A stretch of DNA of 51,885 bases from an uncultured Clostridia bacterium (GTDB lineage: Bacteria; Bacillota; Clostridia; TANB77; CAG-465): the NCBI GenBank assembly GCA_944386605.1, contig CALXBS010000007.1, positions 1-51,885 of the forward strand. The letters run 5' to 3'. Under the pieces are notes generated by a model. The model searched no databases, was not told where the DNA came from, and saw only the letters and a list, made by a program, of their open reading frames with translations. The translations under genes and the position numbers were made by a program. This document shows, piece after piece, positions 4,473 through 19,865 of the stretch. The stretch's first letter is position 1. Each line of letters opens with the position of its first letter.

Positions 4473-4506
4473 CAAAAAAGCTACAGTTTTTAAATAACCA
4501 TAGCTT
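4473..4506 (-). terminator. Terminator of the dnaD-dnaC operon
   Basis: On the minus strand AAGCTATGGTT pairs with AACTGTAGCTT (11 bp including G-U pairs, loop ATTTAAA) and is followed by a T-run. It overlaps the last codons of the 40-residue gene. Confidence 0.7.
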
Positions 4507-4612
4507 CAACACTTTTATTCTTCTTTCCTAACTCTAGTTTTACTCTATTTTCTTCTTTTATTTTTTCTATTTTGATACAACCATTTTCCATTTGAATGAT
4601 TATTTTTATCAT
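4490..4612 (-). CDS. Small conserved-looking protein after dnaC, 40 residues
   Basis: A short reading frame beginning MIKIIIQMENG and ending SVEAMVI, with a good GTGAGGTG ribosome site 6-7 nt before its ATG. It starts 41 nt after the dnaC stop and ends inside the operon's terminator hairpin, which is the usual place for a genuine last gene. The sequence is charged (Lys/Glu-rich middle) and looks like a small beta hairpin plus helix. I recognise no family. Expression is inferred only from the ribosome site and position. Confidence 0.5.
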   Translation of the reverse strand: MIKIIIQMENGCIKIEKIKEENRVKLELGKKNKSVEAMVI

Positions 4613-4653
4613 ATTCACACCTCACTATAAAATATTATACCATATTTTATGTT

Positions 4654-5682
4654 TTATGTCAACTTTTTTGCTTGAATAAGCTTTTTCTTTAATCTTATAT
4701 CTTCTCCAACAAATTTACAAATTGTAAAACTTCCGATTAGTCTTGACATAACTCTTTCATCATATTCTTTATATAAACTTTTTAATGAAAGATTGGTGGA
4801 AAATACCATCTTTTTATTTTTTAATAAACGGGTATTAATGATTTTAAATAATTCTGTGAATTTATGGTTATTCATACTTTCTGTTCCAAGATCATCAATA
4901 ATTAAAAGATCAACATCAAAAATCTTATTATATTGTTCTTTCTCATTTCCAGTCTTACTATATGAAAAACGATAATCCATGATTTGATCCATTAAAATAG
5001 GGGCTGTCTGATATACCACTGTTTTTCCTTTTTTAATGACTTCTGCTGCAATACAATTTGCTAGAAATGTCTTTCCAAGACCAGTATTTCCAACAAATAA
5101 TAAGTTTTTTTGATTGTGATCATCGATATGATTACAAAACTCTAATGCAATTTTTCGAATATTTTCTATATTTTCCATTGGAGATTTTTCAATTCCATAT
5201 TTTTCTACATCTGCTACCTTTGAGTAAAAACCTATGTCAAAAGTATCGAAATTTTCTTCTGATAACTTATTAATATTTACTTGCTTATATGTTTCATTAA
5301 TAACTGCCTGTGAGAAACAACTACAAATAGCATAGTTATTTTCATTCTTTACAATTCCTGTATCTTGACATCTTTCACAATCAAATTTTGGTTCAAAATC
5401 TTTTCTTGTTAAACCAATTTTATTTAATTCCCTGTCATATTTCTTATTTAGTTTATCTAATTTTATTGCTAAATTTTCTTGTTCTATTTGTTTGGTTACT
5501 TCATCTGCATTTAAAATAACTTTTGTTGTATTAAGTGCAAGTAAATTTATTTCATCTTCAATTTTACTTAAAACCGGATTTTCTAAATAAATTTTTTCTT
5601 TAAAACGTTTCGCAGTATCTATTTTTCTTTGTCTTTTTAAATCATACTCTCTCTTTATTTCTCTATATATACCACTATCCAT
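4654..5682 (-). CDS. dnaC: Replicative helicase loader, DnaC/DnaI-type AAA+ ATPase
   Basis: A 342-residue AAA+ ATPase that would load the replicative helicase DnaB/DnaC at origins or restart sites. An N-terminal helical region precedes a zinc-ribbon-like cluster (C102, C105, C120, C122). Walker A GNTGLGKT is at about 198-205, Walker B reads LLIIDDLG, and sensor 1 lies in FSTNLS. This matches DnaI/DnaC of Firmicutes. It lies 13 nt after dnaD in the same operon, the usual primosome pairing. Upstream in the same operon are type IV secretion-like genes, which is not usual. Confidence 0.9.
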   Translation of the reverse strand: MDSGIYREIKREYDLKRQRKIDTAKRFKEKIYLENPVLSKIEDEINLLALNTTKVILNADEVTKQIEQENLAIKLDKLNKKYDRELNKIGLTRKDFEPKFDCERCQDTGIVKNENNYAICSCFSQAVINETYKQVNINKLSEENFDTFDIGFYSKVADVEKYGIEKSPMENIENIRKIALEFCNHIDDHNQKNLLFVGNTGLGKTFLANCIAAEVIKKGKTVVYQTAPILMDQIMDYRFSYSKTGNEKEQYNKIFDVDLLIIDDLGTESMNNHKFTELFKIINTRLLKNKKMVFSTNLSLKSLYKEYDERVMSRLIGSFTICKFVGEDIRLKKKLIQAKKLT

Positions 5683-5695
5683 TTTTTCACCTCAC

Positions 5696-6652
5696 TTATA
5701 AGTTATCATAAAAAGTCTCAATATTATCATATTCACGTTGATCATAATCTTGATATTTTACTTTTGATTTTGATTGCATGCTTGGATTTTCCTTCTTTTC
5801 AGTTGCTACAGATTCTTTTTGAATATCTTCTAAAGTTTTATATCCTTTATCATGCCAGTTTTTTAAAATGCCATCTACATATTTTAAAGAAGGATTTGAT
5901 TTTGCCACAGTTCTTTTTAAAGCTTCCTCTATAATATTAAAATCATATTGATAATCCTTTACCCACTTATCAATATATTGATCTTCATATTTTGTAAAAT
6001 TTCTATTTAATCTTAAAGCTTTTAAAATCTTTTGCTTTATTTTACTTATTTTTTCATAGCTTTCTAAATATTCCTCTAATTGTTCAAAAGTTTTCACTCC
6101 GCCTTTATACCAATTCTCTGCTACTGCATATACATATTTTCTATTTAAAGCCTTTCTTTCTCTACAATAATGAAATAATGCGATCATAACATCACCAGAA
6201 AAAGAATAGTTTTTAAATAATGTTCCAATATCTGTATACCATCCTAATGACATAATTCCTTGGAAAAAACTTTCATTAATGGCAGAAGCTGCAGCCATTC
6301 GCATTTTTTCTAATTCTGACTGAACTCTATTTACCTTTGGTTCCATCTTAGGAATATATGACTTATTTACTTCTGCTTCTTTTAAATCATTCACTAAAAA
6401 GCCTTGTGATGTTTTGGTAATTAATTCTTCTGCCTGCAAAACATCTAGGCTATTTTTTATTTCAGCCTCTGTTACACAAAATCTTTTAGCTAAATCTGAA
6501 TTTTCAATTTCTATTTGATTCTTTAAAGCAAATAAAATATAAAGGTATAACTTAATATCTAAACTTTGCAAAGAAACCATTTGATTTAAAATAAATAAGT
6601 CTGGAACGCTTGTATCACTTAATTCTAATTTATTTTTAGATGTAATTTTCAT
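5696..6652 (-). CDS. dnaD: DnaD-domain primosome protein
   Basis: A 318-residue protein with an N-terminal winged-helix-like region (residues about 10-75) and two DnaD/DnaB2 repeats, each ending with the family's typical tryptophan pattern (AENWYKGG at about 180-190; LKNWHDKG at about 263-270). It would remodel origin DNA and recruit the DnaC loader. The last 20 residues, with pattern YQDYxQRxYDNxxxFYDN, are nearly repeated at the end of the mobile element's replication protein (15181-15246), suggesting a docking peptide. The ribosome site AGGAG lies ahead of the ATG. Neighbours are dnaC downstream and a small membrane protein upstream (about 45 nt). Confidence 0.88.
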   Translation of the reverse strand: MKITSKNKLELSDTSVPDLFILNQMVSLQSLDIKLYLYILFALKNQIEIENSDLAKRFCVTEAEIKNSLDVLQAEELITKTSQGFLVNDLKEAEVNKSYIPKMEPKVNRVQSELEKMRMAAASAINESFFQGIMSLGWYTDIGTLFKNYSFSGDVMIALFHYCRERKALNRKYVYAVAENWYKGGVKTFEQLEEYLESYEKISKIKQKILKALRLNRNFTKYEDQYIDKWVKDYQYDFNIIEEALKRTVAKSNPSLKYVDGILKNWHDKGYKTLEDIQKESVATEKKENPSMQSKSKVKYQDYDQREYDNIETFYDNL

Positions 6653-6697
6653 TTTTTATTCTCCTATAATAGACTTTTATGTCAGTTTATTATATCA

Positions 6698-7048
6698 TTA
6701 CTTTCTTTTTTTTACAATATATTTGTTTTGTTTATATATTTTGTTACATTTTTTTATAAATCTCTTATCTACATAAATTCCATTATCTAAATAAAACTTT
6801 ATCATAATTAAGATGACATCAATGGCACTTTCCGAATGAATATGAATTACAAATATAGAAAGAAATGGAACCATTAAAAGAACAAAAATAATAAAACTTT
6901 TCTCGAAAACTAAATTTAGTTTTTCTAAAAGCATTAAAACTAACCAAAGATAAATCATAATAATCGATAATGACTTATAATCTATTATTCCTAACCATTT
7001 TTTACTACTTTTAAACAAATATGTTTTTTGTTCATTTACTTTCTTCAT
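6698..7048 (-). CDS. Small two-helix membrane protein, VirB3/PrgI-like
   Basis: A 116-residue protein with a basic N-terminus, two adjacent membrane helices (about residues 24-43 and 51-70) with a proline in the second, an amphipathic segment and a lysine-rich C-terminus. This is the layout of VirB3/PrgI inner-membrane components of type IV secretion systems, and the genomic company fits. Its start overlaps the VirB6-like gene by 4 nt (ATGA), implying translational coupling. Sequence similarity to PrgI is judged by eye only, so the family name is tentative. Confidence 0.5.
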   Translation of the reverse strand: MKKVNEQKTYLFKSSKKWLGIIDYKSLSIIMIYLWLVLMLLEKLNLVFEKSFIIFVLLMVPFLSIFVIHIHSESAIDVILIMIKFYLDNGIYVDKRFIKKCNKIYKQNKYIVKKRK

Positions 7049-7860
7049 CGATTTTTTAGCCTTTCAAATATACCAGTAAAAAATGCACTAATAAAAGATG
7101 AAATTTTAGACATAAGATACAAACACCCTAAAACAATCACTTTATATATATCGCTATTTTTATCATCATATAAAATGGGTATTAAAATGATTAACTTAAT
7201 AAATATTTCAATTAGTAAATTGATTAATAATGTACGAAACCAAATTTTAGAAAAAGATACTGTAGCAGGATCGTATAAACATAAGAAAGCAAATGGAGAA
7301 ACAAGTATTAAAAATATAATTGTAACATAACGAATAGATAAAGTAATTAACAAAGAAATAGAAGCACCAGATAATATTCCTTTAATTAGCCCTGCTACAC
7401 TAATAAAATCAGCACTATCCATTCCTTTGATATTCATAATTTCTTTTCCTAATAATTCAAAATTAATCGTTTGATTTACTGTAGAAAAACAAAATTTCGT
7501 AATTCCATCTGATAAAGAATCAAAAATTTCAAATAAAAACTTACAAATTTCATAGCTATTATTTACTAGTATCATCATAAACACAAATTTTCCTAAAAAA
7601 TAATATACATTCTCCATTGAATCCCCATTATATAGAAAAATAAGCTGCTTTATAATATAAAATAGAACAAATAATAATAGTAATGTATTAGCTAACATAA
7701 TCATCCCATTATTTTTTCCATTCATTAAATCTTTTAATGGTTCTTTGGCAAGAATGCTACTATTTACTTCTAAAATCTGATCAATTAAAGGAAAGACATC
7801 TCTTTGCAGTATCTTGAAAAACTTTTCTGATAAAACGTTAAAATTATTAATAATATCCAT
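7045..7860 (-). CDS. VirB6/TrbL-like polytopic membrane protein
   Basis: A 271-residue protein with about six membrane segments. A hydrophobic core around residues 165-205 (RYVTIIFLILVSPFAFLCLY) is typical of the VirB6/TrbL channel family: a conserved SPFAFLCL-like stretch and then an aromatic KIWFRTLL segment. It would form the membrane core of a secretion channel. Its ATG shares one base with the stop of the pilin-like gene and its end overlaps the next gene by 4 nt, so four genes are translationally coupled. The closest alternative is an unrelated multi-spanning protein. Confidence 0.6.
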   Translation of the reverse strand: MDIINNFNVLSEKFFKILQRDVFPLIDQILEVNSSILAKEPLKDLMNGKNNGMIMLANTLLLLFVLFYIIKQLIFLYNGDSMENVYYFLGKFVFMMILVNNSYEICKFLFEIFDSLSDGITKFCFSTVNQTINFELLGKEIMNIKGMDSADFISVAGLIKGILSGASISLLITLSIRYVTIIFLILVSPFAFLCLYDPATVSFSKIWFRTLLINLLIEIFIKLIILIPILYDDKNSDIYKVIVLGCLYLMSKISSFISAFFTGIFERLKNR

Positions 7861-8183
7861 TATTTTACAATTGCTTCAACAAATTTTATAATCAAATTCA
7901 AGGATAAAATAATTGCATAACATACAATGGCGTTTACTATAATCTTTTTTCCCATTCGCATTTTCTCTTCATCACCAAAACTAAACTTTCTAATCAAAGC
8001 TCCTGCTGCAATAGCAACACCTGCTGCCGGAGTTGCTAGTTTTTCTAAATATCCCTGAATTTTTTTTAATGCTGAATTTAATTTATTTACTAATGTAGGA
8101 TCTGTAGCTGCATAAAGATTACTACTAAGAAAAAACATTAATAGAATTAAAGTAATAGAAAAAAACATAACTTTTCGATTCAT
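7860..8183 (-). CDS. VirB2/TrbC-like pilin subunit
   Basis: A 107-residue protein with a cleavable-type signal peptide (hydrophobic 6-22, AxA-like SNLYAATD). A short helical region and two hydrophobic helices follow, the first with a small-residue-rich PAAGVAIAAGALI motif. Signal peptide plus two hydrophobic helices in about 100 residues is the VirB2/TrbC pilin layout. It sits 4 nt after the coupling-protein gene. In Gram-positive systems such proteins are membrane components and need not form a pilus. Confidence 0.6.
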   Translation of the reverse strand: MNRKVMFFSITLILLMFFLSSNLYAATDPTLVNKLNSALKKIQGYLEKLATPAAGVAIAAGALIRKFSFGDEEKMRMGKKIIVNAIVCYAIILSLNLIIKFVEAIVK

Positions 8184-8187
8184 CGCA

Positions 8188-10110
8188 TCACTCCCATCTT
8201 TTCAAATAACATTTTTTATATAACTTCATTTCCATTCCATCAGAAATAAGACAAACTGCTTGAAATGTATTTAATTGATAAGAGAAATAATTTTCATCTA
8301 TTATATACTCTTTCTTTTCTGAAAAACTATAACTTTTTGATAAAGAAGAATGATAGCTCTTAAATTTATTTGAAAATATATTAAAATGAGTAAATTTTGG
8401 ACTTTCTGTTACATTAGTTGTTTGATAACGCATTGTTTCTTTTCCTATCTGTTTAATCACTTCAGAAATGGTATAAGTATCATCATTTCTAAACCAAATT
8501 TTATTTACTAAATTTTGTATAATAATTTTAGCTGCATATTCATTTCTTAGTTTCTCAATTAAAGAGCTATAACTTTGCATACTAATAATATTAATACATT
8601 GATATTCTCTAGATAAAGAGAAAAAATGCCCATCTTCTATATTTGCTATTTCTTGATATTCATCACAAATAAAAAATACATTCTTTCGATTAAAACTTGT
8701 TGATAAAACTTGCTTTTGAAAATCTAATTTTAAATAAGTACAGATAATTTTAGAAATTGCTTGATTTTCCCCTATGTTAATGGATACAACATAAATATGA
8801 TTATAAAAATTCAATTCATCACTTTTTTGACAAAAACAATCATACAATTTTTTATCTGAAACAAAGACACTAGTGATTCTTGTAATTTCTGATTTAATAA
8901 TTCCTACTGTTCTATCATCTAACATTAAAAACTCATTTTTTATATTAGAAATAGCACTTCTTAAATTAAATAAATCATCTTCACCAAATTTTCCGTTTAA
9001 AATTTTTTCTTTTAACTCTGCAATTGTTTCTAATAAATACTCTTTTTCTGTTACTAAACGATGTATTTCATAAAAACTTACAATTTTATCATTTGCTCTT
9101 ATCAAAACAATAAAATCTCTTAAAAAGTTTTCCACTTTATCCACCCAATAACTATCTGAATGCGACATATCAGATAAAAGTTCTAGTACTTTTCTCATAC
9201 GATTTGCTAACTCATTAGCAGAGACATAAGGTTTGTCTAAAGGATTATATTTAAAATCAGAATCAATTGAAATTTTATATATGGTGTTTTCTAAACAAAA
9301 TTTCCTTTTCATATCTAAGATTTCATTTATATAATTTCCTTTTACATCTATAACGAGCCCATTTAGTTGATATTTCATAAACTCTTTTGTAAAATTAGAA
9401 ATAGCAGAGCTTGTTTTTCCACTTCCAATACTTCCTGTTATTAAGACATTCTGATATAACCCTTTTTCTTTTATAACGACTTCATTTTTAGCTTCATCTA
9501 ACCCTACTTTAATAAATATTTGAGGATTCATTTCTTTAGGAATACATGATAAGGATCTTTTTTCAAAATACCAATTTACTATTTGGTATACAATACGAAT
9601 TGTAACAATTGAAAAGAAAAAATAATATAATACTTTAAATAGAATAAAATTGTTACCTAAAAGAGAAGCTAAATCTAGCGTCTTAGAAAAAAATTGAAAT
9701 GGTAAAAAATTTGTTTTGATAAAAGGATAGGTAAAAGCAAGCTTTACCAACAAAATAATAAAATATATGCTAAAAGTAACATATATTTTATTGGGTGATA
9801 AAATTTGATATACAAAATTTTTATTGAAAAAATATTTTAGAAAGAAAGTTTTATTTTGTTCTTCAAAGTTGCCAGTTATATTTTGCAGATCATTATTTAC
9901 ATACTTATCTAGTTTTGCACCATTACTATTTAGTATATAAAATTTGTCTACTAGAGAATATAACCAAAAGATAGAAAAAATAGAATAAAAAACAAATTCG
10001 ATAACATATATCATATTAAATCTATCACCTGCTGACATTTTAACACGATAAAATAAAGAAAACAACAATTTTTCATATTTCTTACAAATATTGCTAAAAG
10101 TTCTCGTCAT
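8188..10110 (-). CDS. VirD4/TraG-like type IV coupling ATPase
   Basis: About 640 residues. Three N-terminal membrane helices are followed by an ATPase domain with Walker A GSIGSGKT (about residues 226-233), a VIDVKGNY strand, Walker B FFICDEYQE and a sensor-like ISMQS. The C-terminal domain resembles TraG/TraD proteins. It would use ATP to drive substrates into the adjacent VirB-like channel. The start is uncertain: ATG 10110 lacks a clear ribosome site, whereas ATG 10014 has GGTGAT 9 nt upstream and begins right at the first membrane helix. It is first gene of the operon. No VirB4 or relaxase is nearby. Confidence 0.72.
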   Translation of the reverse strand: MTRTFSNICKKYEKLLFSLFYRVKMSAGDRFNMIYVIEFVFYSIFSIFWLYSLVDKFYILNSNGAKLDKYVNNDLQNITGNFEEQNKTFFLKYFFNKNFVYQILSPNKIYVTFSIYFIILLVKLAFTYPFIKTNFLPFQFFSKTLDLASLLGNNFILFKVLYYFFFSIVTIRIVYQIVNWYFEKRSLSCIPKEMNPQIFIKVGLDEAKNEVVIKEKGLYQNVLITGSIGSGKTSSAISNFTKEFMKYQLNGLVIDVKGNYINEILDMKRKFCLENTIYKISIDSDFKYNPLDKPYVSANELANRMRKVLELLSDMSHSDSYWVDKVENFLRDFIVLIRANDKIVSFYEIHRLVTEKEYLLETIAELKEKILNGKFGEDDLFNLRSAISNIKNEFLMLDDRTVGIIKSEITRITSVFVSDKKLYDCFCQKSDELNFYNHIYVVSINIGENQAISKIICTYLKLDFQKQVLSTSFNRKNVFFICDEYQEIANIEDGHFFSLSREYQCINIISMQSYSSLIEKLRNEYAAKIIIQNLVNKIWFRNDDTYTISEVIKQIGKETMRYQTTNVTESPKFTHFNIFSNKFKSYHSSLSKSYSFSEKKEYIIDENYFSYQLNTFQAVCLISDGMEMKLYKKCYLKRWE

Positions 10111-10139
10111 TCGACACAAATAATTGATAAAAATTGCAT

Positions 10140-10423: not shown

Positions 10424-10499
10424 GCTGGAATAGCTCAGCTGGTAGAGCAACGGTCTTGTAAACCGTAGGTCCTCAGTTCAAATCTGAGTTTCAGCTCCA
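10424..10499 (+). tRNA. tRNA-Thr (TGT), integration target
   Basis: Acceptor GCTGGAA/TTTCAGC, anticodon loop CTTGTAA, TTCAAAT T-loop and encoded CCA. The 3' part from the anticodon loop onward is repeated at 20378-20423, marking it as the integration site of the following element. The gene stays intact at the left end. Confidence 0.95.
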
Positions 10500-10519
10500 T
10501 TAAAAATTGGTAAATCAAG
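10454..10519 (+). repeat. attL: Left attachment site, 66-bp direct repeat
   Basis: A 66-bp sequence identical to 20378-20443. It begins in the tRNA-Thr anticodon loop, covers the tRNA 3' half and runs through the first arm of the tRNA operon terminator. The integrase gene lies just inside, and both repeats have the same orientation, as expected for att sites of a tyrosine integrase. Confidence 0.95.
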
Positions 10520-10545
10520 CGACTTTCAAAGGTTGCTTGATTTTT
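10509..10545 (+). terminator. tRNA cluster terminator at left junction
   Basis: AATCAAGCGAC pairs with GTTGCTTGATT before a T-run. The left arm begins inside att and the right arm is element DNA, so the element brings its own terminator for the tRNA operon. Confidence 0.75.
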
Positions 10546-10561
10546 TATTTTATAAATAATA

Positions 10562-10590
10562 TCAAAAATTGTGGCGAATTTGTGGCGAAA
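10562..10590 (+). repeat. Left arm-type integrase site (tandem TTGTGGCGAA)
   Basis: Two tandem copies of TTGTGGCGAA form a 29-bp block repeated exactly at 20235-20263, near the other end and in the same orientation. Position and tandem layout fit integrase or Xis arm-binding sites. Confidence 0.65.
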
Positions 10591-10663
10591 GTTTTAACAC
10601 TTTAAAATATTTCAGAACAACTTAAGGTAAATTTGCCTCTTTATAGAAGAATTAATAATATAA

Positions 10664-10689
10664 AAAAACCGGATAACTTTTTATTATCC
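10664..10689 (-). terminator. Terminator of the integrase gene
   Basis: On the minus strand GGATAA pairs with TTATCC across TAAAAAG, followed by GGTTTTTTT. It overlaps the integrase stop codon. Confidence 0.65.
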
Positions 10690-11829
10690 AATTATATTTT
10701 TATCTTTTGTATTATCTGTAAAAAATCCATTCATTGTATTTGCTATTTCTTTAAAGCTATCATCAAAATAATGTGAATATATTTTATGTGTTGTGCTGAC
10801 ATTTGAATGACCAGCCCTTTTTGATATTAATTGAATAGGTATATTACTATTAGCCTGTAATGAAATTGATGTGTGCCTCAAAGCGTGAAAATTTATATAT
10901 CTTAAATTATATTTCTTTATTATTTTAGTTAATATTTTTGAAGGTGTATCTGGGTGCATATCATAACCATAATCAGTTGTAAAAACTCTTTTACTATTGC
11001 CCCATTTACTACCTAAACGCATACGCATTAACAATTGATTTTTTTCATAAGCTTTTAATATCTTACAAGTTGTTTCAGATATATATATTTTTCTATTACT
11101 TGTTTTATTTTTAGGTTCCTTTTCATATATGCCTAATTCTTTTGAATATTGTGTAATCTTATTTATACTAATAGATGAATTATCTAAATCTATATCATTC
11201 CACGTTAAACCTGTTAACTCTCCTCGCCTTGCTCCTGTATCTAAAGCTAATAATATTACAGCTTGATATTTAATAGGCTCCAATTCAATAGCTTTTACAA
11301 GTTTATGTACTTCATCAGGAGTATAACATTGTAGTTCTTTTTCTTTAACTTTTATGTGTTCTACGTTCTCATTAGAATTATTTTCAATATATCCCCATTT
11401 TTTAGCACATACTAACATATTATTTATTATCTGATAATGATGTTTTATTGTTCTATCTGAAAAAGTTGTATTTTCCTTTAAATCTGTGTAAAAATCTTCT
11501 AATATTTTTGTGTTTAAGTTCTTTAACTTTATATGTCCTAATCCATTTACGATATTTTTACTATATAAAGCATAAGTACTATATGTTTTTGGTGCTAATT
11601 TATCCTTTTTAAACTTTAACCACTCAATAGATAAATCATTTACAGTCATTTTATTATTTATTAAAGAGGCTTTATTCATATACTTAGCCTTTATTTGATT
11701 TTCTCTTATTATAGCCTCTTTCTTTCCACCGTAAAAAGTTTCTGTATGCCTTATTTTCTTTTTTTTATTATATCCTAATACAACTTCTATTCTATATTTT
11801 TTTCCTTTTTCTATTTCTTTTATTGACAT
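10684..11829 (-). CDS. int: Tyrosine recombinase (Tn916/phage-type integrase)
   Basis: A 381-residue integrase for site-specific insertion and excision. An N-terminal arm-binding domain (about 1-45) and a SAM-like core-binding domain (about 55-150) precede the catalytic domain. Its pentad is visible as R in GARRGEL, K in the following beta hairpin, HALRHT, GHS and the nucleophile Y in IYSHYF. The ATG at 11829 has GGAGAG 6 nt upstream; a TTG at 11853 is less likely. It overlaps the repressor gene by 38 bp, so both are made from the repressor promoter. Confidence 0.93.
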   Translation of the reverse strand: MSIKEIEKGKKYRIEVVLGYNKKKKIRHTETFYGGKKEAIIRENQIKAKYMNKASLINNKMTVNDLSIEWLKFKKDKLAPKTYSTYALYSKNIVNGLGHIKLKNLNTKILEDFYTDLKENTTFSDRTIKHHYQIINNMLVCAKKWGYIENNSNENVEHIKVKEKELQCYTPDEVHKLVKAIELEPIKYQAVILLALDTGARRGELTGLTWNDIDLDNSSISINKITQYSKELGIYEKEPKNKTSNRKIYISETTCKILKAYEKNQLLMRMRLGSKWGNSKRVFTTDYGYDMHPDTPSKILTKIIKKYNLRYINFHALRHTSISLQANSNIPIQLISKRAGHSNVSTTHKIYSHYFDDSFKEIANTMNGFFTDNTKDKNIIG

Positions 11830-12739
11830 TTGTTGCTCTCCATTCTTTTTCAATTCGCATTAATTCATCTACTTTTTTTATCCTTAAAGAACCGTATATA
11901 TCATTATATAATTCATTTATTGAAATTTTAAAACAGTCTGTTATAACCTCTATTAAATCATAAAATTTATGGCTTTCTTCTATAATTTGGTTCATAACTT
12001 CTGCAACCTTTACTCCTATACTATATTTTCCGTTTCCAATTAGTTCAATAATTAACTTATATTGGTTCATTATATAGTTTAATTTATCGTTTACATTTAA
12101 TTCTCTATATATAATTCCTAATTTACTATAATCTAATTCACCTTGATTACTTTTATTTATATATTTATTAATATTTCTGTTTATAAAATCTAACCTTAAA
12201 TTTTTTTCTTGAGATATTTTTTTTATTACACTTAAAGTATATCCTCTTATTTCCTGTTCTCTAAAAGAAAAGTATTCTATTTTTTTATTATTAGAATTAT
12301 AACTATACTCAAATGTATCTGCAACAAACTCATCTCTAAAAGTATTTATAAGAGTATATTCTAAAAAATACTCAATAAATTCAGTAAAAATATATTCGTT
12401 CAATAAATCATCGAATAAATTATAATATTCGTTATTGATTCTCTTTATATTCTCAATAGATTTGTCAGTTAATTTTAATTCTTTGCCTATATTTAAATTT
12501 TCTTTTTTATAAGTTGTTATATTATCATCAATCAAATATTCTAATGTTACATCATAATATCTTGCTAATGCTAATAATACATCGCCTTGCGGTATTCTAG
12601 GAGCTTTTACGTTTTCATAATTTCTTATAGAACTAATAGCAACATTTATATTTTGTTTTTCCTTTAATTCTTCTATAAGCTTATTTTGAGATATTCCTTT
12701 TTCTTCTCTTAATTTACGTAGTTTTTCAGCTATATTCAT
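11792..12739 (-). CDS. XRE-family repressor of the element
   Basis: A 315-residue protein. An N-terminal helix-turn-helix of the Cro/C1 type (about residues 4-70, EKLRKLREEKGISQNKLIEE) precedes a long helical C-terminal region I do not recognise. It has no visible LexA-type Ser-Lys peptidase motif, so induction is probably not by self-cleavage; antirepressors encoded in the element are the likely partners. It is transcribed leftward with int from the operator region 12787-12839. Confidence 0.8.
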   Translation of the reverse strand: MNIAEKLRKLREEKGISQNKLIEELKEKQNINVAISSIRNYENVKAPRIPQGDVLLALARYYDVTLEYLIDDNITTYKKENLNIGKELKLTDKSIENIKRINNEYYNLFDDLLNEYIFTEFIEYFLEYTLINTFRDEFVADTFEYSYNSNNKKIEYFSFREQEIRGYTLSVIKKISQEKNLRLDFINRNINKYINKSNQGELDYSKLGIIYRELNVNDKLNYIMNQYKLIIELIGNGKYSIGVKVAEVMNQIIEESHKFYDLIEVITDCFKISINELYNDIYGSLRIKKVDELMRIEKEWRATNVNKRNRKRKKI

Positions 12740-12786
12740 TTTATCCCACCTTTAAATAAATGTTTCACATTTCTTTATGCAGTATG

Positions 12787-12839
12787 TGTATACATTTTTT
12801 TGTATACATATTGACAATGATACATTTTTATAGTATTAT
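12787..12839. promoter_or_regulatory. Divergent promoters with paired repressor operators
   Basis: Two copies of the palindrome TGTATACA (12787-12794 and 12801-12808) are spaced 14 bp centre to centre. The rightward promoter is TTGACA (12811-12816), 17 nt, TATTAT (12834-12839). A leftward promoter TTGTCA, 17 nt, TGTATA overlaps both operators. The arrangement fits a lysogeny-type switch controlled by the XRE protein. Confidence 0.7.
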
Positions 12840-12940
12840 ATTGTTGTAGTTATTATTATGTATCTAAATTAAGTATAATACAAATTTTTGTTCTAGTCAA
12901 TAATAATAACAATAATTTATTATAAGGAGGTGTATAAAAG

Positions 12941-13132
12941 ATGAAAGCAAATCAAGAACTAAGAACAAGAATAGAAGAAAATCATATCAGATATTGGCAA
13001 GTAGCCTATGAATATGGTATTGATGACACTGCATTTTCTAAAAAACTAAGAAGAGAATTACCAGAAGAAGAAAAAGAAAAAATCAATAAAATAATTGATA
13101 AGTTAATCAAAGAAAAAGAAGAAAAGAAATAA
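12941..13132 (+). CDS. Small phage-type HTH protein, 63 residues
   Basis: A 63-residue basic protein (core RYWQVAYEYGIDDTAFSKKL) of a type often seen just after the divergent promoters of Firmicute prophages and integrative elements. The core reads as a helix-turn-helix, followed by a Glu/Lys-rich helix. It could be a Cro-like or excision-control protein; no precise role can be shown. It is the first rightward gene, with AAGGAGG upstream, 15 nt before the next gene. Confidence 0.65.
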   Translation: MKANQELRTRIEENHIRYWQVAYEYGIDDTAFSKKLRRELPEEEKEKINKIIDKLIKEKEEKK

Positions 13133-13147
13133 AGGAGGTAGATATTA

Positions 13148-13399
13148 ATGTCAAAATTTTACAATGTAAGTACAGATGAGCAAGAAACAATAATTAATAT
13201 AGATTATAAAGCTAAAAAATTAAAATGCTATACCAGCAGACAAAGTGTATATGACAGACTATTTAAAAAATTAGGTACCCCAACAAAAACATTTTATACA
13301 AATAAAAAAATAAGTGGAGCAAGTTGGAGTATCCCTTTTAAGGATAAAAAGAAAGCAAATATTATATTTTCAAAAACTATTGTTGTAGGTAATCTATAA
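13148..13399 (+). CDS. Conserved element protein, 83 residues, function unknown
   Basis: A small basic protein with an N-terminal STDEQET motif and a TSRQSVYDRLFKKLG helix. Similar short proteins occur in Firmicute prophages beside the small HTH protein. AGGAGG precedes the ATG. It is co-directional with the preceding gene. Possible role in transcription or translation control is a guess; only the recurrent neighbourhood supports it being real. Confidence 0.6.
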   Translation: MSKFYNVSTDEQETIINIDYKAKKLKCYTSRQSVYDRLFKKLGTPTKTFYTNKKISGASWSIPFKDKKKANIIFSKTIVVGNL

Positions 13400-13540
13400 T
13401 ATCCCCTTTTTAATTCAAAATACTATAACAGGATTAAGCATATAAAATTTAAATATAAAAATAGTATAAGATTATACCTTGACATATAAAGGTGTCTTAA
13501 AATGCGTTATAACCATCAAAAAAAGGAAGAGGTGTAAAAA

Positions 13541-13762
13541 ATGGATATAATGAATGTAAAAGAATTAGCAAAATATTTAAAATGTTCTGAGTCAGTAATA
13601 AGAAACTTAATAAGAGATAATGCAATACCATATTTTAGAATAGGTTATCGAATTAACTTTAATAAAGAGGCAATAAATGAATGGATAAAAAATCAAGAAA
13701 TAAAAAATATGAAACAACAATCAAAACCGAATGAAATAAAAAGTATTAAAACTGTAATTTAA
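13541..13762 (+). CDS. xis: Excisionase-family DNA-binding protein
   Basis: A 73-residue MerR/Xis-like winged-helix protein: MNVKELAKYLKCSESVIRNL, then RIGYRINFNKEAINEWI, the typical HTH_17 layout. It would bend DNA at the att arms for excision or act as a transcription regulator. GGAAGAGGTG lies upstream. It contains one exact copy of the dispersed TAAAGAGGCA word (13663-13672) in the codons for Lys-Glu-Ala. It has its own upstream region with TTGACA (13488) but a poor -10, suggesting an activated promoter. Confidence 0.75.
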   Translation: MDIMNVKELAKYLKCSESVIRNLIRDNAIPYFRIGYRINFNKEAINEWIKNQEIKNMKQQSKPNEIKSIKTVI

Positions 13763-13780
13763 AGAAATAGAGGTGTTTAT

Positions 13781-13831
13781 ATGTTAGATAAAAAATACAA
13801 GGCAATAAATCCCCATTTAAAAGCCTTGTAA
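13781..13831 (+). CDS. Possible 16-codon peptide gene coupled to a hairpin
   Basis: ATG at 13781 with AGAGGTG 6-7 nt upstream encodes MLDKKYKAINPHLKAL and a stop. An 8-bp perfect inverted repeat, TACAAGGC (13796-13803) and GCCTTGTA (13823-13830), lies inside the frame, with no T-run after it. It may be a leader peptide or only an RNA structure. Too short to judge by sequence. Confidence 0.3.
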   Translation: MLDKKYKAINPHLKAL

Positions 13832-13871
13832 TGTATTACCAAATACACTAATATTATATAATGCCTCTTTA

Positions 13872-13907
13872 AAATTGTAAAGACTTTTATAGTAAACTTT
13901 ACAATTT
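13872..13907. promoter_or_regulatory. Perfect inverted repeat before the antirepressor
   Basis: The arms AAATTGTAAAG (13872-13882) and CTTTACAATTT (13897-13907) have a 14-nt loop, directly after a TAAAGAGGCA word (13862-13871, reverse). It may be an operator or an mRNA hairpin for the gene at 13956. Confidence 0.5.
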
Positions 13908-13955
13908 CAACGCATTAGCAAACAAATGTTTTGTGAAATGGTATGGAGGTAAAAA

Positions 13956-14681
13956 ATGAAGATGAATAATTTAATAAATATAAATGAAAATCAGGAACCA
14001 GTTGTAAATGGTAGAGAATTGTATAAAGCATTAGAAATTAAAACAGATTATAAAGACTGGTTTCCTAGAATGTGTGAATATGGTTTCAATGAAAATCAAG
14101 ATTACACTACAATAATTGAAGAAGTAGACGCTCAAAAAAGAGCGCGTACTTATGAACAAAGAAATCACATTTTAAGTTTAGATATGGCAAAAGAAATAGC
14201 TATGCTACAAAGAAATGAAAAAGGAAAAGAAGTAAGAAAATATTTTATACAAGTAGAAAAAGATTTCAATAGCCCAGAAAAAATAATGGCAAGAGCTTTA
14301 AAAATAGCAGAAGATAAAATAAATATATTACAATTAGACAACGCAAAATTAAATGAACAAAATCAATTAATGCAACCTAAAGCCTTTTACTTTGATGAAT
14401 TAGTAAACAGAAACTTATTAACTAACTTTAGAGAAACAGCAAAAGAATTAAAAGTAAAAGAAAAAGACTTTATAAACTATTTGCTTGATAACAAATATAT
14501 ATTTAGAAATAAAAAAGGTAAATTAGAACCTTATGCGCATAAAAATAATGATTTATTTGAAGTTAAAGAGGCAATAAAAGGTAAATGGAGCGGTACACAA
14601 ACATTAATAACCCCAAAGGGTAGAGAAACATTTAGACTATTACTTGACAATGTATCAAAAGGGGTGAGAAATAATGGATAA
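13956..14681 (+). CDS. Phage antirepressor, AntA and KilAC domains
   Basis: A 241-residue protein. The N-terminal AntA/AntB domain (about 12-95, NGRELYKALEIKTDYKDW) is followed by a coiled linker and a C-terminal KilAC DNA-binding domain (about 125-235, LLTNFRETAKELKVKEKDF). Such proteins inactivate or compete with phage repressors. GGAGGT lies 5 nt before the ATG, and the gene overlaps the replication gene by 8 nt, so the two are coupled. One TAAAGAGGCA word lies in its 3' part. Confidence 0.88.
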   Translation: MKMNNLININENQEPVVNGRELYKALEIKTDYKDWFPRMCEYGFNENQDYTTIIEEVDAQKRARTYEQRNHILSLDMAKEIAMLQRNEKGKEVRKYFIQVEKDFNSPEKIMARALKIAEDKINILQLDNAKLNEQNQLMQPKAFYFDELVNRNLLTNFRETAKELKVKEKDFINYLLDNKYIFRNKKGKLEPYAHKNNDLFEVKEAIKGKWSGTQTLITPKGRETFRLLLDNVSKGVRNNG

Positions 14682-15246
14682 TATAAGCAGTAAAAAAGCT
14701 TTTCAACTTTATTATGATAGTTACACATTATTTAAAAAACTAGGAAACACAAAAGCAGGAGACTTAATATTAGCTATTTTTGAATATGAAACTAAAGAAG
14801 TGCTTCCAAATTTTAAAGATGATATGGCACTAGATATAACTTTTGATGTAATAAAAGCATATTTAGATAGGAATAGAGAAAACTATAATAAAAAATGTGA
14901 AAAAAATAGAGAAAATATCAAAAAAAGATGGAGCAATAAAAATGATATTACTAATGATGAACAAATACAAAATGATACAACTGTATACGATCGTATACCA
15001 TCGTATACAAATGGATACGAAACGATACGAAGCGATACCAAAAATACCGATAATGATAGTGATAAAGATAGTGATAATGATAATGATAATGATAATGATA
15101 ATGATAGTGATAGTGGTAATGATAATGATAGTGATAAAAAAATAAAAAAGAAAAAAATAAAAAAAGAAAAAAGTTATAAAAAAGCATATCAAGACTACTC
15201 ACAACGTAAATATGATAACTTAGATGACTTTTACGATAATATATGA
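14674..15246 (+). CDS. Replication-type protein (DUF6291-like N-terminus) with acidic repeat and DnaD-like tail
   Basis: A 190-residue protein. The N-terminal helical domain (about 1-90, SSKKAFQLYYDSYTLFKKLG) is of the type found in phage replisome-organiser proteins. A middle region (about 125-155) is a Ser/Asn-Asp repeat encoded by GATAAT/GATAGT units. A lysine-rich stretch and a 20-residue tail nearly identical in pattern to the C-terminus of host DnaD follow. The gene contains a palindromic CGTATAC/CGATAC cluster that could be an internal origin. RBS AGGGGTGA lies upstream. It likely recruits the host DnaC loader; this is inference. Confidence 0.65.
   Translation: MDNISSKKAFQLYYDSYTLFKKLGNTKAGDLILAIFEYETKEVLPNFKDDMALDITFDVIKAYLDRNRENYNKKCEKNRENIKKRWSNKNDITNDEQIQNDTTVYDRIPSYTNGYETIRSDTKNTDNDSDKDSDNDNDNDNDNDSDSGNDNDSDKKIKKKKIKKEKSYKKAYQDYSQRKYDNLDDFYDNI
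14983..15038. repeat. Iteron-like CGTATAC/CGATAC cluster within the replication gene
   Basis: A perfect 16-bp palindrome, GTATACGATCGTATAC (14983-14998), is followed by further CGTATAC and CGATAC copies in about 55 bp, and then an AT-rich GATAAT tandem tract to about 15135. Phage replication genes often embed their origin this way. Confidence 0.5.
15055..15137 (+). repeat. GATAAT/GATAGT hexamer tract
   Basis: Some thirteen tandem 6-bp units code for alternating Asp and Ser/Asn. The tract is prone to slippage, changes only protein length, and probably acts as a flexible acidic linker. Confidence 0.8.
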
Positions 15247-15251
15247 TTATT

Positions 15252-15276
15252 TAAAGAGGCAAAGAATGCCTCTTTA
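15252..15276 (+). terminator. Hairpin built from two inverted TAAAGAGGCA words
   Basis: TAAAGAGGCA (15252-15261) and TGCCTCTTTA (15267-15276) with loop AAGAA form a 10-bp stem right after the replication gene. It has only a short T-run, and probably serves as its terminator. Confidence 0.6.
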
Positions 15277-15439
15277 TTAATAAAACACATAAAATTATCT
15301 TTTAAATCCACTTATATGCTTTTATCATAAAATTAAATCTACTTGAATATAAATCCAATAATAATCTAATTTTTATATAATGAATGGCTTATAGAAAGCT
15401 CAAAGTAAAGCGAAAGCTCTATAATTAAAAGAGAAAAAG

Positions 15440-15472
15440 TACGACAAAAATACGACAAAAATACGACAAAAA
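15440..15472 (+). repeat. Three tandem TACGACAAAAA units
   Basis: A perfect 11-bp unit occurs three times in tandem. Length and spacing match the tandem TTGTGGCGAA arm sites at the element ends, so it may be the arm site of an earlier integrase. Confidence 0.55.
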
Positions 15473-15560
15473 ATATATGTGTATTCAAGTAACAATTTTT
15501 TAACAATAAAAATATAAATACAGTTCAATAAATATCAATTTTATAAGGGGTGAACTAAAA

Positions 15561-15676
15561 TTGAACGATAAACAAGAAAAGTGTATAAATCTAATGATTA
15601 CAACAATTAAAACTAAAAAGAAATTGCAAAAGAAATTGAAGTGTCTAAAAAGACCAATATGCGAATAGAAGAGTGA
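15561..15676 (+). pseudogene. Frameshifted small HTH gene
   Basis: A TTG start after AAGGGGTG gives NDKQEKCINLMITT. The continuing homology lies in the +2 frame as KEIAKEIEVSKKTN, a helix-turn-helix of the kind seen in phage small terminase or phBC6A51 proteins. One frameshift thus breaks the gene, and no C-terminal part follows. Confidence 0.45.
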
Positions 15677-16251
15677 TTAAGTTCTTTCTTGATTATACTT
15701 CTATATCACTTTTTATAAAAAATTATTTAACTTAGCAAAACTTAGCAAATTTATAAAATATTATTTAAATTTTCCCAACTAATTGGGAAAACAAAAAACT
15801 AAACTATAATGCTGACAATTGCTGACATTCAGGAATATATTTTAGAAAAAAATTTATTCTATCTATTTACTATAATGTATTCACCTTTTAATACCTCTTT
15901 ATTTTTCAATAAGGATAATACACTATTTAAATATAAAAATTCTATATGCTTAACCTTGTTAGCGTATTTTAATCGTAAAATCGATTTTAATAATTAATAT
16001 TAAGACATGTTTATATAAAAAGTTATTTAAAGAGGCAAAACCAAATTTAGTCTATAGTATTTTTTATTTCACTGATTCATCGATGACTAATCGTGGAATA
16101 GTCTCTCCTAAGTTCGGTACTTATGTCGAAAATAAAATATGATACCTTGAATATAAAAAATATATTAAAAAGGCTTATATAAATTCATAAATAATACAAA
16201 AAGATGACCTCAATACTAATGAAATCATCTTATTTTTTAATTAATGTTATT

Positions 16252-16593
16252 TTATATAATTAACTTCGAATAAATTTTAAATCTCAGTATTCTCAACATA
16301 ATTAAATAGCATAGGTTTTCTGGTATATATTCTGGTAACTTACTAGAAAGTATTAAACTATATAATCCACTTTCATTTATTACTACCATTTTTCTGTTTT
16401 GTCTACCGTCGTGAAATGCGACGTCAGATATTTTATCTTCTTCATCAACATGTTGCAATGAAGCGTCTCTTGTATTTCTATATCCTAGTATAGAGGCTAT
16501 ATCATTCCCAACAAAATATGGTTGTCCATTTATTTCTTGTACTCTAACCTTTCCAAATTCTTTATTTTCAAATATTTTTAATTTATTATCCAT
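16252..16593 (-). pseudogene. Truncated Bro-N antirepressor
   Basis: A 113-residue frame. Residues 1-85 form a clear Bro-N domain (GQPYFVGNDIASILGYRN, HVDEEDK, INESGLYSLILSSKLPE). Normal proteins continue with a lysine-rich helix and a C-terminal domain; here the sequence changes to an unrelated hydrophobic tail after SSKLPE and stops. It may be non-functional or a single-domain DNA-binding form. GGGGGA lies before the ATG, 2 nt after the small membrane-protein gene, in a leftward operon. Confidence 0.7.
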
Positions 16594-16595
16594 TA

Positions 16596-16763
16596 TTATA
16601 TCCCCCTTAATATTAACTTTTTAAATTCATTATATATACTTATCCTTGTTATCCAATATACAACAGCTTGTATACTTATTAAAATCATTAAACTTGGTAT
16701 ATGTATTGTTACCATTTTTATTAAACACATTATTATTAAAATTATTCCTTCTAGTATTCCCAT
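16596..16763 (-). CDS. Small two-helix membrane protein, 55 residues
   Basis: A short frame (MGILEGIILIIMCLIKMV...) with GGAGGA 9 nt before its ATG. Two hydrophobic segments (about 4-18 and 23-43) are separated by a short loop, and a basic tail (YNEFKKLILRG) follows. It is placed between the 89-residue gene (2-nt gap) and the Bro-N fragment (2-nt gap), so it belongs to the same leftward operon. The layout would suit a small inner-membrane effector, for example a holin-like or toxin-like peptide, but no family is recognised. Confidence 0.55.
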   Translation of the reverse strand: MGILEGIILIIMCLIKMVTIHIPSLMILISIQAVVYWITRISIYNEFKKLILRGI

Positions 16764-16765
16764 GT

Positions 16766-17035
16766 TTATTTTTCCTCCGAACTTTCTTCTTTTGATAAGT
16801 CATCCAAACTTTCTAAAACTTCATTCATTTTATAAAAAATTATATTTAATATATTTTGTGTATCTACATAAAGCTCCTGAGCTCTTGCTATTTGATAATA
16901 ACTATCGCTTTTATTTTTGTCAGCATAATATAAATATACGTAATCTTTCTCTAGTAAATAATTTAATAGTTTACTTGCTGTACCTAATTGATACTTTATA
17001 TCTTCTACTTTATCAATATCGACCATTTTTCTCAT
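16766..17035 (-). CDS. Small acidic helical protein A, 89 residues
   Basis: An all-helical, acidic protein (VEDIKYQLGTASKLLNYLLE near the start, Glu/Ser-rich end). It shares a loose pattern with the next two upstream genes: a helix with LLxYLL, an aromatic middle segment and a C-terminal EDL-like helix. AAGGAG lies upstream. It is 15 nt after gene B. No known family; possibly a diverged triplicate. Confidence 0.5.
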   Translation of the reverse strand: MRKMVDIDKVEDIKYQLGTASKLLNYLLEKDYVYLYYADKNKSDSYYQIARAQELYVDTQNILNIIFYKMNEVLESLDDLSKEESSEEK

Positions 17036-17050
17036 AATAAATCAACTCCT

Positions 17051-17290
17051 TTATATTAAATCTTTCAATAAATCTTCTGCCTCTTTAGATATAACATCTA
17101 TATAATCACTTAATATATCTAAATATACAGACTCATTTTTTAAATATAATGATATATTACTATTTTCTGCCTCCATACTTAATTTAAAATTTTCATCCAT
17201 CATTATATTAATTAATTCTTTTATTGTAGTTGATTTACTACTTATCTCTTGTAAACTATTTTCACTTATTACCTTGTTTTCATTTTTCAT
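17051..17290 (-). CDS. Small acidic helical protein B, 79 residues
   Basis: A 79-residue helical protein (EISSKSTTIKELINIMMDEN...KEAEDLLKDLI) with the same overall pattern as its neighbours A and C. GGAGGTT lies before the ATG. One TAAAGAGGCA word is embedded in its 3' end (codons for Lys-Glu-Ala). Function unknown. Confidence 0.5.
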   Translation of the reverse strand: MKNENKVISENSLQEISSKSTTIKELINIMMDENFKLSMEAENSNISLYLKNESVYLDILSDYIDVISKEAEDLLKDLI

Positions 17291-17419
17291 AAAAAATAAC
17301 CTCCATTCATTTACTTGAACTTTGGCTCTTACTATGATACAATAAATTTGTAAGAGCTAAAATTCTTACTTGTTGAGATAATCTGTCAGTCGTCAAACTT
17401 AATCAGATTATCCCTTTTT

Positions 17420-17707
17420 TTATACTGATTTTTCTTCATCAGCTTCATAATATGTTATGATTATCTCTTCTAAATCTTCTTTAATTTTTAATGAAGAATC
17501 AAAGAATATATCAAGAAAGGTTTGAGTTATATGGTACTTTCCATTTGCTTTTCTAACTACTTTTCTTAATTCTAGATCCTTATTATTTGTAGTTTCAATC
17601 AATTCTCTTGTCGAATACTCTTGATTTATAAAATAAGTTAATAAATTATATATCAGCTTTACCTTTGAGCTTATTTTTTCTATATCTTTTATTTTTATAT
17701 CTTTCAT
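17420..17707 (-). CDS. Small acidic helical protein C, 95 residues
   Basis: First gene of the leftward cluster. It begins MKDIKIKDIEKISSKVKLIY and ends with an acidic stretch (EDLEEIIITYYEADEEKS). GAGGGGTG is upstream. The KISSK motif and spacing resemble protein B (EISSK), suggesting common ancestry. It is driven by the strong promoter at 17784-17812. Function unknown. Confidence 0.5.
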   Translation of the reverse strand: MKDIKIKDIEKISSKVKLIYNLLTYFINQEYSTRELIETTNNKDLELRKVVRKANGKYHITQTFLDIFFDSSLKIKEDLEEIIITYYEADEEKSV

Positions 17708-17783
17708 GTTTTACACCCCTCTTTCAGCTTCTTATTTAAATTAAAAATCAACTCTACATTTGAATTGTTAACTTCATACTTTA

Positions 17784-17812
17784 ATTATATAGTATATATT
17801 TAAACTTGTCAA
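17784..17812 (-). promoter_or_regulatory. Consensus promoter of the leftward small-gene cluster
   Basis: TTGACA (17807-17812), exactly 17 nt, TATAAT (17784-17789) on the minus strand. It is a perfect sigma-A type promoter, so the cluster is probably expressed during lysogeny. Confidence 0.8.
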
Positions 17813-17911
17813 TAGATTTTTTAAAAAAATGTTAAACTTTTTAATTAAAGAATTGATTTTTCAAACGATTAGTTATAAAATAATATTATAATAAAGAAAG
17901 GAATTGATAAA

Positions 17912-18136
17912 ATGACAAATAAAGAACAGATACAAAGAGCTTTAGCAAGACGTAATATAACATTAACAGAATTATATAAACGTTTAAAAGAAAAATATAA
18001 TAAAACTTACAGTTTTGCAAATTTAAGTAGTAAAATAAATCGTAATACTTTAAAAGATAGCGAAATACAAGAAATAGCAGACGTATTAAATTGTGATATA
18101 CAATGGATAGATAAAGAAACAGGTGAAAGAATATAA
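17912..18136 (+). CDS. Small XRE-type HTH protein, 74 residues
   Basis: A 74-residue DNA-binding protein: KEQIQRALARRNITLTELYK, then NLSSKINRNTLKDSEIQEIADVL, an LLM-class Cro/C1 helix-turn-helix seen in many phage elements. It is divergent from the leftward cluster, so it may regulate the promoter at 17784. AAAGGAA lies ahead of its ATG. Confidence 0.75.
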   Translation: MTNKEQIQRALARRNITLTELYKRLKEKYNKTYSFANLSSKINRNTLKDSEIQEIADVLNCDIQWIDKETGERI

Positions 18137-18189
18137 TTTATTCTATATAGTACATTATAATAGATTAAAGAGGCAAAATGGAGGTTTTT

Positions 18190-19098: not shown

Positions 19099-19106
19099 CA
19101 TATATC

Positions 19107-19134
19107 TCAAAGGGGTCGATTTCGACCCCTTTGA
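19107..19134. terminator. Strong GC-rich hairpin after the KilA-N gene
   Basis: The arms TCAAAGGGGTCG and CGACCCCTTTGA form 12 perfect pairs with loop ATTT. There is no U-run, so it may be a terminator of atypical type, an mRNA 3' stabiliser or a protein-binding palindrome. Confidence 0.5.
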
Positions 19135-19442
19135 AACTTGTACGAACTAACTAGAATTTATAAGACTTTATATTACTTCTTATAAAAAATATTTAATTTA
19201 TGTGTCAGCAAAACTTAGCATTTTATATTATGAAAACTTGTCAAAACTTGACTTTTTATAAAAATATTTAAAGTTTTTTTGCTAAGAAAAATAAAAATCT
19301 AAAATACCCAAATAGTGCATTAATGTCCTATATTTAACATACCCTATTAAAATATCGACTTATTTTTTAACGGATATTCTATGCACTTAAACGTTTCCAC
19401 TTAACGCCCTCCTTAGTAAGGCGTTTTCTACTTCATAATCTA

Positions 19443-19590: not shown

Positions 19591-19865
19591 CTATTAAACT
19601 GACAATTGCTTATATTAAATTTAATGCAAATTATTAAGAAATGTTAAGCTTCAAAACTGAAAAATATTAAGATTTATTCATTTAAAGAGGCAATAAATAC
19701 AAAATAAGCAAGTAAAAAATTGGAAAGAAAAAAAGGCACAAAAAGAGCACCAAAAGAGCACTAAAATTATACAAAAACTATAGAAAAAGAAGCAAAAAAG
19801 AGCAAAAAAACAGTTGAAAAATTAAATCTTATCATTTCTAAGCATAAAAAAATATAATATATCTT

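What the first reader, a model, noticed from the sequence alone, without database searches (positions are those of the whole stretch)
4490..10119. Type IV secretion-like genes fused into one operon with the dnaD-dnaC primosome genes
Seen: seven leftward genes with gaps or overlaps of -4 to about 46 nt (coupling ATPase, pilin-like, VirB6-like, VirB3/PrgI-like, DnaD, DnaC, 40-residue protein), one candidate promoter and one terminator. Known: VirD4, VirB2, VirB3 and VirB6 are parts of type IV secretion systems, which normally also need a VirB4 ATPase, and mobile versions carry a relaxase. Both are missing beside this set, and the locus has no integrase or att site. Inference: a chromosomal, domesticated DNA-handling membrane machine may be tied to replication initiation or restart (DNA uptake, export or chromosome anchoring).
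Basis: partly seen in the sequence, partly recalled or inferred. Interest (0 to 1): 0.78.

Follow-up and report, generated by a model that had tools for sequence, protein, structure and literature searches.

The report
Domesticated transfer machine beside helicase-loader genes
A whole order of uncultured gut Clostridia keeps, as an ordinary inherited chromosomal gene set just upstream of its DNA-helicase-loader genes, a bacterial DNA/protein transfer machine (type IV secretion system) that has lost its link to mobile DNA; what it transports is unknown.

Summary
The genes are real. Leftward from about 10014 to 6698 lie a VirD4 coupling ATPase, a VirB2 pilin, a VirB6 channel protein and a PrgI/VirB3-like protein, followed by dnaD and dnaC. 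The arrangement is ancient: the D4 family is in 219 of 287 genomes of the order (40 of 45 genera) and in 2 genomes outside it in a 391-genome class sample; 87 of 90 loci have the order D4-B2-B6-B3-dnaD-dnaC. The 'missing' VirB4 exists: it lies in a second operon with a TadZ-like ParA ATPase, just beyond gyrA in several families. Three relaxase families are absent from the genome. This is a vertically inherited, relaxase-less ('MOBless') T4SS, probably domesticated from a conjugative element. dnaD has its own conserved promoter after B3 (87% of 107 loci), so these are tandem units, not one fused operon, and a functional tie to replication is unproven. An integrase with a perfect 66-bp att repeat does lie next to D4, but it belongs to a separate 9.9-kb phage element. 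One clade lost D4 once yet kept B2-B6-B3 and VirB4. Substrate (DNA or protein) is open.

The parts
8188..10014 (-). VirD4/TraG-type coupling ATPase (D4), 608 aa from ATG 10014 (ORF open to TTG 10119); N-terminal transmembrane segments, Walker A GSIGSGKTS, Walker B FFICDEY
   Evidence: Pfam TrwB_AAD_bind 2.6e-11, TraG-D_C 1.5e-9; Walker B DE invariant and Walker A glycines/Lys nearly invariant (90% or more) in 23 homologues across the order
7860..8183 (-). VirB2/TrbC-type pilin (B2), 107 aa
   Evidence: Pfam TrbC 2.3e-8, T4SS_pilin 1.8e-6; present in 101 of 104 D4 loci
7045..7860 (-). VirB6-like polytopic membrane protein (B6), 271 aa
   Evidence: AlphaFold2 pLDDT 83.5; first eight Foldseek PDB rows are TrwI/VirB6 stalk/IMC chains of R388, E 5e-3 to 0.11; VIA-align Z 10.5 over 233 residues
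6698..7048 (-). PrgI/VirB3-like protein (B3), 116 aa, two transmembrane segments
   Evidence: hhalign against PrgI-type family of the second T4SS, E 3.3e-5, probability 72% over 96 columns; lies directly before VirB4 in family f2 (L115, L214)
6689..6717 (-). conserved dnaD promoter TTGTAA-17-TGnTATAAT
   Evidence: score >=10 upstream of dnaD in 87% of 107 loci versus 0-14% for the other genes, shuffled mean 8.4
5696..6652 (-). DnaD-domain primosome protein (conserved neighbour, own transcription unit)
   Evidence: Pfam DnaB_2 5.5e-31, TIGR01446 4e-22
4654..5682 (-). DnaC-type helicase loader (conserved neighbour); mostly the only clear copy per genome
   Evidence: NCBIfam PRK06835 1.6e-97; genome search
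4490..4618 (-). 40-42-aa ORF behind a perfect sigma-70-type promoter and before a terminator-like hairpin; not conserved, probably not part of the system

Best explanation
A chromosomally fixed, relaxase-less type IV secretion system, most likely domesticated from a Gram-positive conjugative element early in the history of this order. Its parts sit in two units: D4-B2-B6-B3 upstream of dnaD-dnaC (in the window), and B4N-VirB4-TadZ(-VirB11/TadA-TadB in some families)-p243, just beyond gyrA in several families and on another contig in this genome. Inferred working: B6 and B3 with VirB4 form the membrane channel, B2 a short pilus, VirD4 feeds the substrate, and the ParA-like TadZ positions the machine. 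It moves a macromolecule, DNA or protein, across the envelope towards or from neighbouring cells. dnaD-dnaC downstream is the host primosome with its own promoter; the linkage is probably positional or regulatory. Shown: identities, conservation, separate promoter, detached VirB4, no relaxase of three families. Inferred: assembly, substrate, direction.
For: Order-wide: D4 in 219/287 genomes, 40/45 genera; outside the order 2 hits in the 391-genome class sample. Gene order canonical in 87/90 loci, with block gaps of 10-12 nt; in two of the three exceptions the D4-B2-B6-B3 block moved whole. Pairwise-distance correlation D4/dnaC 0.78, B6/dnaD 0.89: vertical descent. Detached VirB4: P-loop_TraG 6.8e-12, matches the solved VirB4 4AG5 at 3.1e-24, strong (E<=1e-40) in 52/57 relatives. 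One system: loci A and B about 8 kb apart around gyrA in several families; in family f2 B3-B4N-B4 are adjacent and B2-B6-x-TadZ are adjacent. No relaxase: PF03432, PF02486 and PF01076 absent from the genome; no relaxase-like gene family was recognised among those recurring beside D4. Mobile relatives: in other Clostridia related genes cluster with RepA_N, Topo III or M23.
Against: B3 and B6 assignments rest on weak profile and fold matches. No VirB8 or cell-wall hydrolase was recognised in either operon, although monoderm T4SSs normally need them. The genomes are fragmented metagenome assemblies. Only three relaxase families were searched in the own genome. There are no expression or phenotype data. 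A second chromosomal VirB4 could also be D4's partner.
Confidence: 0.82

Rival explanations
1. It is a Ced-like DNA exchange/import system: chromosomal DNA moves between kin cells through VirB6/VirB4/VirB2, with or without VirD4.
For: D4 has the TraG/TrwB DNA-coupling domains. The D4-less clade keeps the VirB2+VirB6+VirB4 set that defines Ced/Ted, plus B3 (PMC9905601). No effector gene was recognised among the families recurring beside D4.
Against: MOBless T4SSs are mostly linked to protein secretion (PMC3158045). ComEC is present in 57/57 genomes, so a standard DNA-uptake route exists. Processing nucleases were not sought.
Confidence: 0.4
2. It is a protein (effector) secretion system acting on neighbouring cells, as suspected for other MOBless T4SSs and for Patescibacteria.
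For: Relaxase-less chromosomal T4SSs in proteobacteria are mostly known protein secretors (PMC3158045). Patescibacteria keep a similar relaxase-less system whose genes were found essential for epibiotic growth in Saccharimonadia (PMC12102498). The helical orphan p243 recurs at the end of the VirB4 operon.
Against: No toxin/immunity pair or recognisable effector beside either operon; p243 matches no known fold; loss of the coupling protein in one clade would normally abolish effector recruitment, with exceptions such as Bordetella Ptl.
Confidence: 0.4
3. The machine is functionally coupled to dnaD-dnaC (replication initiation/restart or strand synthesis of transferred DNA), which is why the linkage persists.
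For: Linkage in 87 of 90 loci; read-through from B3 into dnaD is possible, as no terminator is predicted between them.
Against: dnaD has its own conserved promoter and a wider gap. Family f2 carries dnaD-dnaC without the T4SS genes. Two loci have the block moved to the other side of gyrA (L174, L188).
Confidence: 0.1
4. It is a decaying remnant of a conjugative element.
For: D4 is lost in one clade and split in a few genomes (G024); B6 diverges faster in the D4-less clade.
Against: Catalytic residues and gene order are conserved at about 50% protein divergence; 219/287 genomes keep D4.
Confidence: 0.06

Closest known systems
T4SS of Patescibacteria (PMC12102498)
   Same: Chromosomal, widespread in a lineage, mostly relaxase-less, monoderm-type VirB4, coupling protein usually away from virB4, often near replication genes (dnaA, dnaN).
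   Different: Here VirD4 is in one block with VirB2/B6/B3 directly before dnaD-dnaC, and VirB4 is in a separate operon with a ParA-like TadZ and, in part, VirB11/TadA and TadB. VirB4 clade membership was not tested.
Ced/Ted DNA-import systems of archaea (PMC9905601)
   Same: Domesticated conjugation machinery without relaxase; VirB4+VirB6+VirB2 core, as in the D4-less clade.
   Different: Bacterial; most members keep VirD4 and a PrgI/VirB3 protein; DNA import is not shown.
MOBless T4SS category (Guglielmini et al. 2011, PMC3158045)
   Same: T4SS without a relaxase on the chromosome.
   Different: Fixed across most of an order with constant gene order, split in two units.
Conjugative-element-like clusters of other Clostridia (e.g. 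L196, L197, L217)
   Same: Homologous D4, VirB4, B6, B3 in varying combinations.
   Different: There the genes cluster with RepA_N, Topo III or M23 genes and are rare; here no mobility genes belong to the set and inheritance is vertical.

Membership tests
Type IV secretion system | VirB4 ATPase | tested here: met
   Not in the window; C9:41481-43292 of the same genome, PF19044 6.8e-12, PDB 4AG5 3.1e-24; E<=1e-40 in 52/57 relatives
Type IV secretion system | VirD4 coupling protein | tested here: met
Type IV secretion system | VirB6 channel protein | tested here: met
   Fold match to TrwI/VirB6 ranked first; no sequence-level Pfam match, so moderate
Type IV secretion system | VirB3/PrgI protein | tested here: met
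   hhalign E 3.3e-5; adjacency to VirB4 in f2; moderate
Type IV secretion system | VirB2-type pilin | tested here: met
Type IV secretion system | VirB8 and cell-wall hydrolase (monoderm type) | tested here: inconclusive
   None recognised in the two operons; candidates present in the second T4SS of the genome
Conjugative element (ICE) | relaxase | tested here: not met
   PF03432, PF02486, PF01076 absent from the genome; none recognised among families recurring beside D4. Other relaxase families not searched
Conjugative element (ICE) | integrase and att sites bounding the T4SS genes | tested here: not met
   The adjacent integrase/att pair (10454-20443) bounds a separate phage element
MOBless chromosomal T4SS | T4SS genes on the chromosome without relaxase, vertically kept | tested here: met
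Ced/Ted-like DNA exchange system | VirB4 + VirB6 + VirB2 without relaxase | tested here: met
Ced/Ted-like DNA exchange system | imports or exchanges cellular DNA | not testable with these tools
   needs a mating/transfer assay
Single operon with dnaD-dnaC | no own promoter before dnaD | tested here: not met
   conserved promoter and wider gap; read-through not excluded
Patescibacteria T4SS clade | VirB4 inside the Patescibacteria clade | not tested
   no Patescibacteria VirB4 set was aligned

The most novel reading that the evidence does not exclude
The machine is a bacterial counterpart of archaeal Ced: a domesticated conjugation apparatus by which cells of this order exchange chromosomal DNA. 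Its genes are kept next to dnaD-dnaC because incoming or outgoing single strands are handed to that primosome.
Probability: 0.1. Interest if true: 0.88.

Novelty: new variant of a known kind. Interest (0 to 1): 0.66.

Why it matters
Conjugation machines are normally the property of mobile elements. Here an order of uncultured gut Clostridia appears to have kept one as a chromosomal gene set, split between two sites around gyrA and dnaD-dnaC. A single loss of the coupling ATPase with retention of the rest provides a natural experiment on what the core does alone. It parallels archaeal Ced and the Patescibacteria systems, and a full-text search for papers combining type IV secretion, VirB4, DnaD and Clostridia found none. 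If it moves DNA, it would be a bacterial case of cell-encoded conjugation; if it moves protein, an unrecognised interaction system of gut bacteria.

Tried and rejected
Chance cluster: rejected by order-wide gene order. Part of the adjacent integrated element: rejected, since the att repeat bounds 10454-20443 and the tRNA Lys-Glu-Thr cluster lies upstream of D4 in many relatives too. 40-aa ORF as a component: no homologue. Another gene before D4 in the operon: among the ORF families recurring beside D4, none was recognised as a T4SS part or relaxase; the commonest upstream one is a divergent FabG-like gene by sequence (families judged by eye, not by HMM). Origin of replication in the window: the GC-skew turn near 47-48 kb lies by mutS/mutL/miaA-like genes and no dnaA was seen, so nearness to oriC is not shown. 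PDB sequence search with D4 found nothing. p243 fold search found nothing convincing. VirB11/TadA and TadB are not obligatory: absent here, in the three D4-less genomes inspected and in several f3 loci. D4 absence in G026, G031, G033 and G041 is uninformative because dnaC is not found there either.

Full report
What is there. Leftward from about 10014, the window holds a VirD4-type coupling ATPase (D4), a VirB2/TrbC pilin (B2), a polytopic protein (B6), a small two-helix membrane protein (B3), then dnaD and dnaC. D4 has TrwB_AAD_bind and TraG-D_C domains. Across 23 homologues of the order its Walker B Asp-Glu is invariant and its Walker A residues are nearly so. D4 probably starts at ATG 10014: the closest relatives start there and an AGGTGA lies 10 nt upstream. 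B6 has no Pfam match, but a confident model (pLDDT 83.5) ranks the R388 VirB6/TrwI chains first in the PDB (Z 10.5 over 233 residues). For helical bundles that Z alone would be weak; the consistency of the top rows and the gene context carry the assignment. B3 aligns with PrgI-type proteins of another T4SS in these genomes (E 3.3e-5).

How general it is. In 57 related genomes D4 is clearly present in 36. In a sample of the order it is in 219 of 287 genomes and 40 of 45 genera. In 391 genomes of the class only two hits lie outside the order. Named records are uncultured Clostridia, many from gut, including Candidatus Merdicola; from memory this is GTDB order TANB77, which was not verified. Among 104 distinct D4 loci, 90 include dnaD and 87 of these have the order D4-B2-B6-B3-dnaD(-dnaC) within 6.5 kb. 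One further locus (L141) has the same order over a longer distance; in L174 and L188 the four-gene block moved whole and stays near gyrA. Protein distances of D4 and B6 track those of dnaD and dnaC (Spearman 0.78-0.89), as expected for vertical descent.

Is it one operon with dnaD-dnaC? Gaps inside the T4SS block and between dnaD and dnaC have medians of 9-12 nt, but the B3-dnaD gap has a median of 99 nt. A TTGTAA-17-TGnTATAAT promoter lies there in the window (6717-6689). A promoter-like site scoring 10 or more lies upstream of dnaD in 87% of 107 loci, against 0-14% for the other genes and a shuffled mean score of 8.4. Two tandem transcription units are therefore the better reading; read-through is possible because no terminator separates them. 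Family f2 carries dnaD-dnaC without the T4SS block.

The missing VirB4. The genome has a VirB4 of 603 aa on contig C9, matching the solved VirB4 4AG5 at 3.1e-24. It is preceded by a 195-aa protein (B4N) and followed by a ParA/TadZ-like ATPase and an orphan protein, p243. The name TadZ-like rests on domain layout and on TadA/TadB-type neighbours in other genomes, not on a family match. The VirB4 family is strong (E<=1e-40) in 52 of 57 relatives. In several families this operon sits directly beyond gyrA, about 8 kb from D4 (G048, G050), and in the own genus about 30-36 kb away on long contigs. Some families add a VirB11/TadA ATPase (VirB11 1.4e-44) and a T2SSF/TadB-like protein between TadZ and p243. 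In family f2, B3-B4N-VirB4 are adjacent near gyrA and B2-B6-x-TadZ are adjacent elsewhere. This exchange of partners between the two loci is the best evidence that they form one system.

Loss of D4. Thirteen species of the same genus form one clade (support 1.0) that lacks D4 but keeps B2-B6-B3-dnaD-dnaC; VirB4 is retained in all of them, and B6 evolves faster there. The machine therefore outlived its coupling protein, leaving the VirB2/VirB6/VirB4 set of the archaeal Ced/Ted systems, plus B3 (PMC9905601).

Mobility. Three relaxase families are absent from the genome. PF03432 occurs in 16 of 57 relatives, not beside these loci. The integrase next to D4 belongs to a 9.9-kb phage-derived element bounded by a perfect 66-bp repeat of tRNA-Thr. 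Related genes outside the order sit with RepA_N, topoisomerase III or M23 peptidase genes, which suggests a conjugative element as the source.

Function. ComEC occurs in all 57 relatives, so the machine is not the only possible DNA channel. Relaxase-less ('MOBless') T4SSs are often protein secretion systems (PMC3158045), while Ced imports DNA (PMC9905601) and the Patescibacteria system is tied to epibiotic growth (PMC12102498). Protein export and DNA exchange are held about equally likely. A link to dnaD-dnaC beyond neighbourhood is possible but has no direct support.

Noticed in passing
window 10454-20443: A 9.9-kb phage-derived element (integrase, repressor, anti-repressor) inserted in tRNA-Thr with a perfect 66-bp att repeat (10454-10519 / 20378-20443).
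   Followed up: partly
L038:6089-18199 (G000:C8): A second chromosomal T4SS-like set (PrgI, VirB4 N-part, VirB4 692 aa, VirB6-like, two VirB8-like candidates, 1402-aa cell-wall hydrolase) whose VirB4 recurs in nearly all relatives; core gene order kept in L202-L205 and L207, with no coupling protein or relaxase recognised in it.
   Followed up: partly
L037:14446-15177: p243, an all-helical soluble protein (pLDDT 88.7) recurring at the end of the VirB4 operon, with no known fold match; possible effector, adaptor or regulator.
   Followed up: partly
window 4490-4662: A 40-aa ORF with a perfect consensus promoter (TTGACA-17-TATAAT with TG) and a terminator-like hairpin but no homologue in related loci; might be a small RNA or a recent gene.
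   Followed up: partly
L098:2974-5020: VirB11/TadA-type ATPase and T2SSF/TadB-like protein inside the VirB4-TadZ operon of some families, mixing T4SS and Tad-pilus parts.
   Followed up: partly
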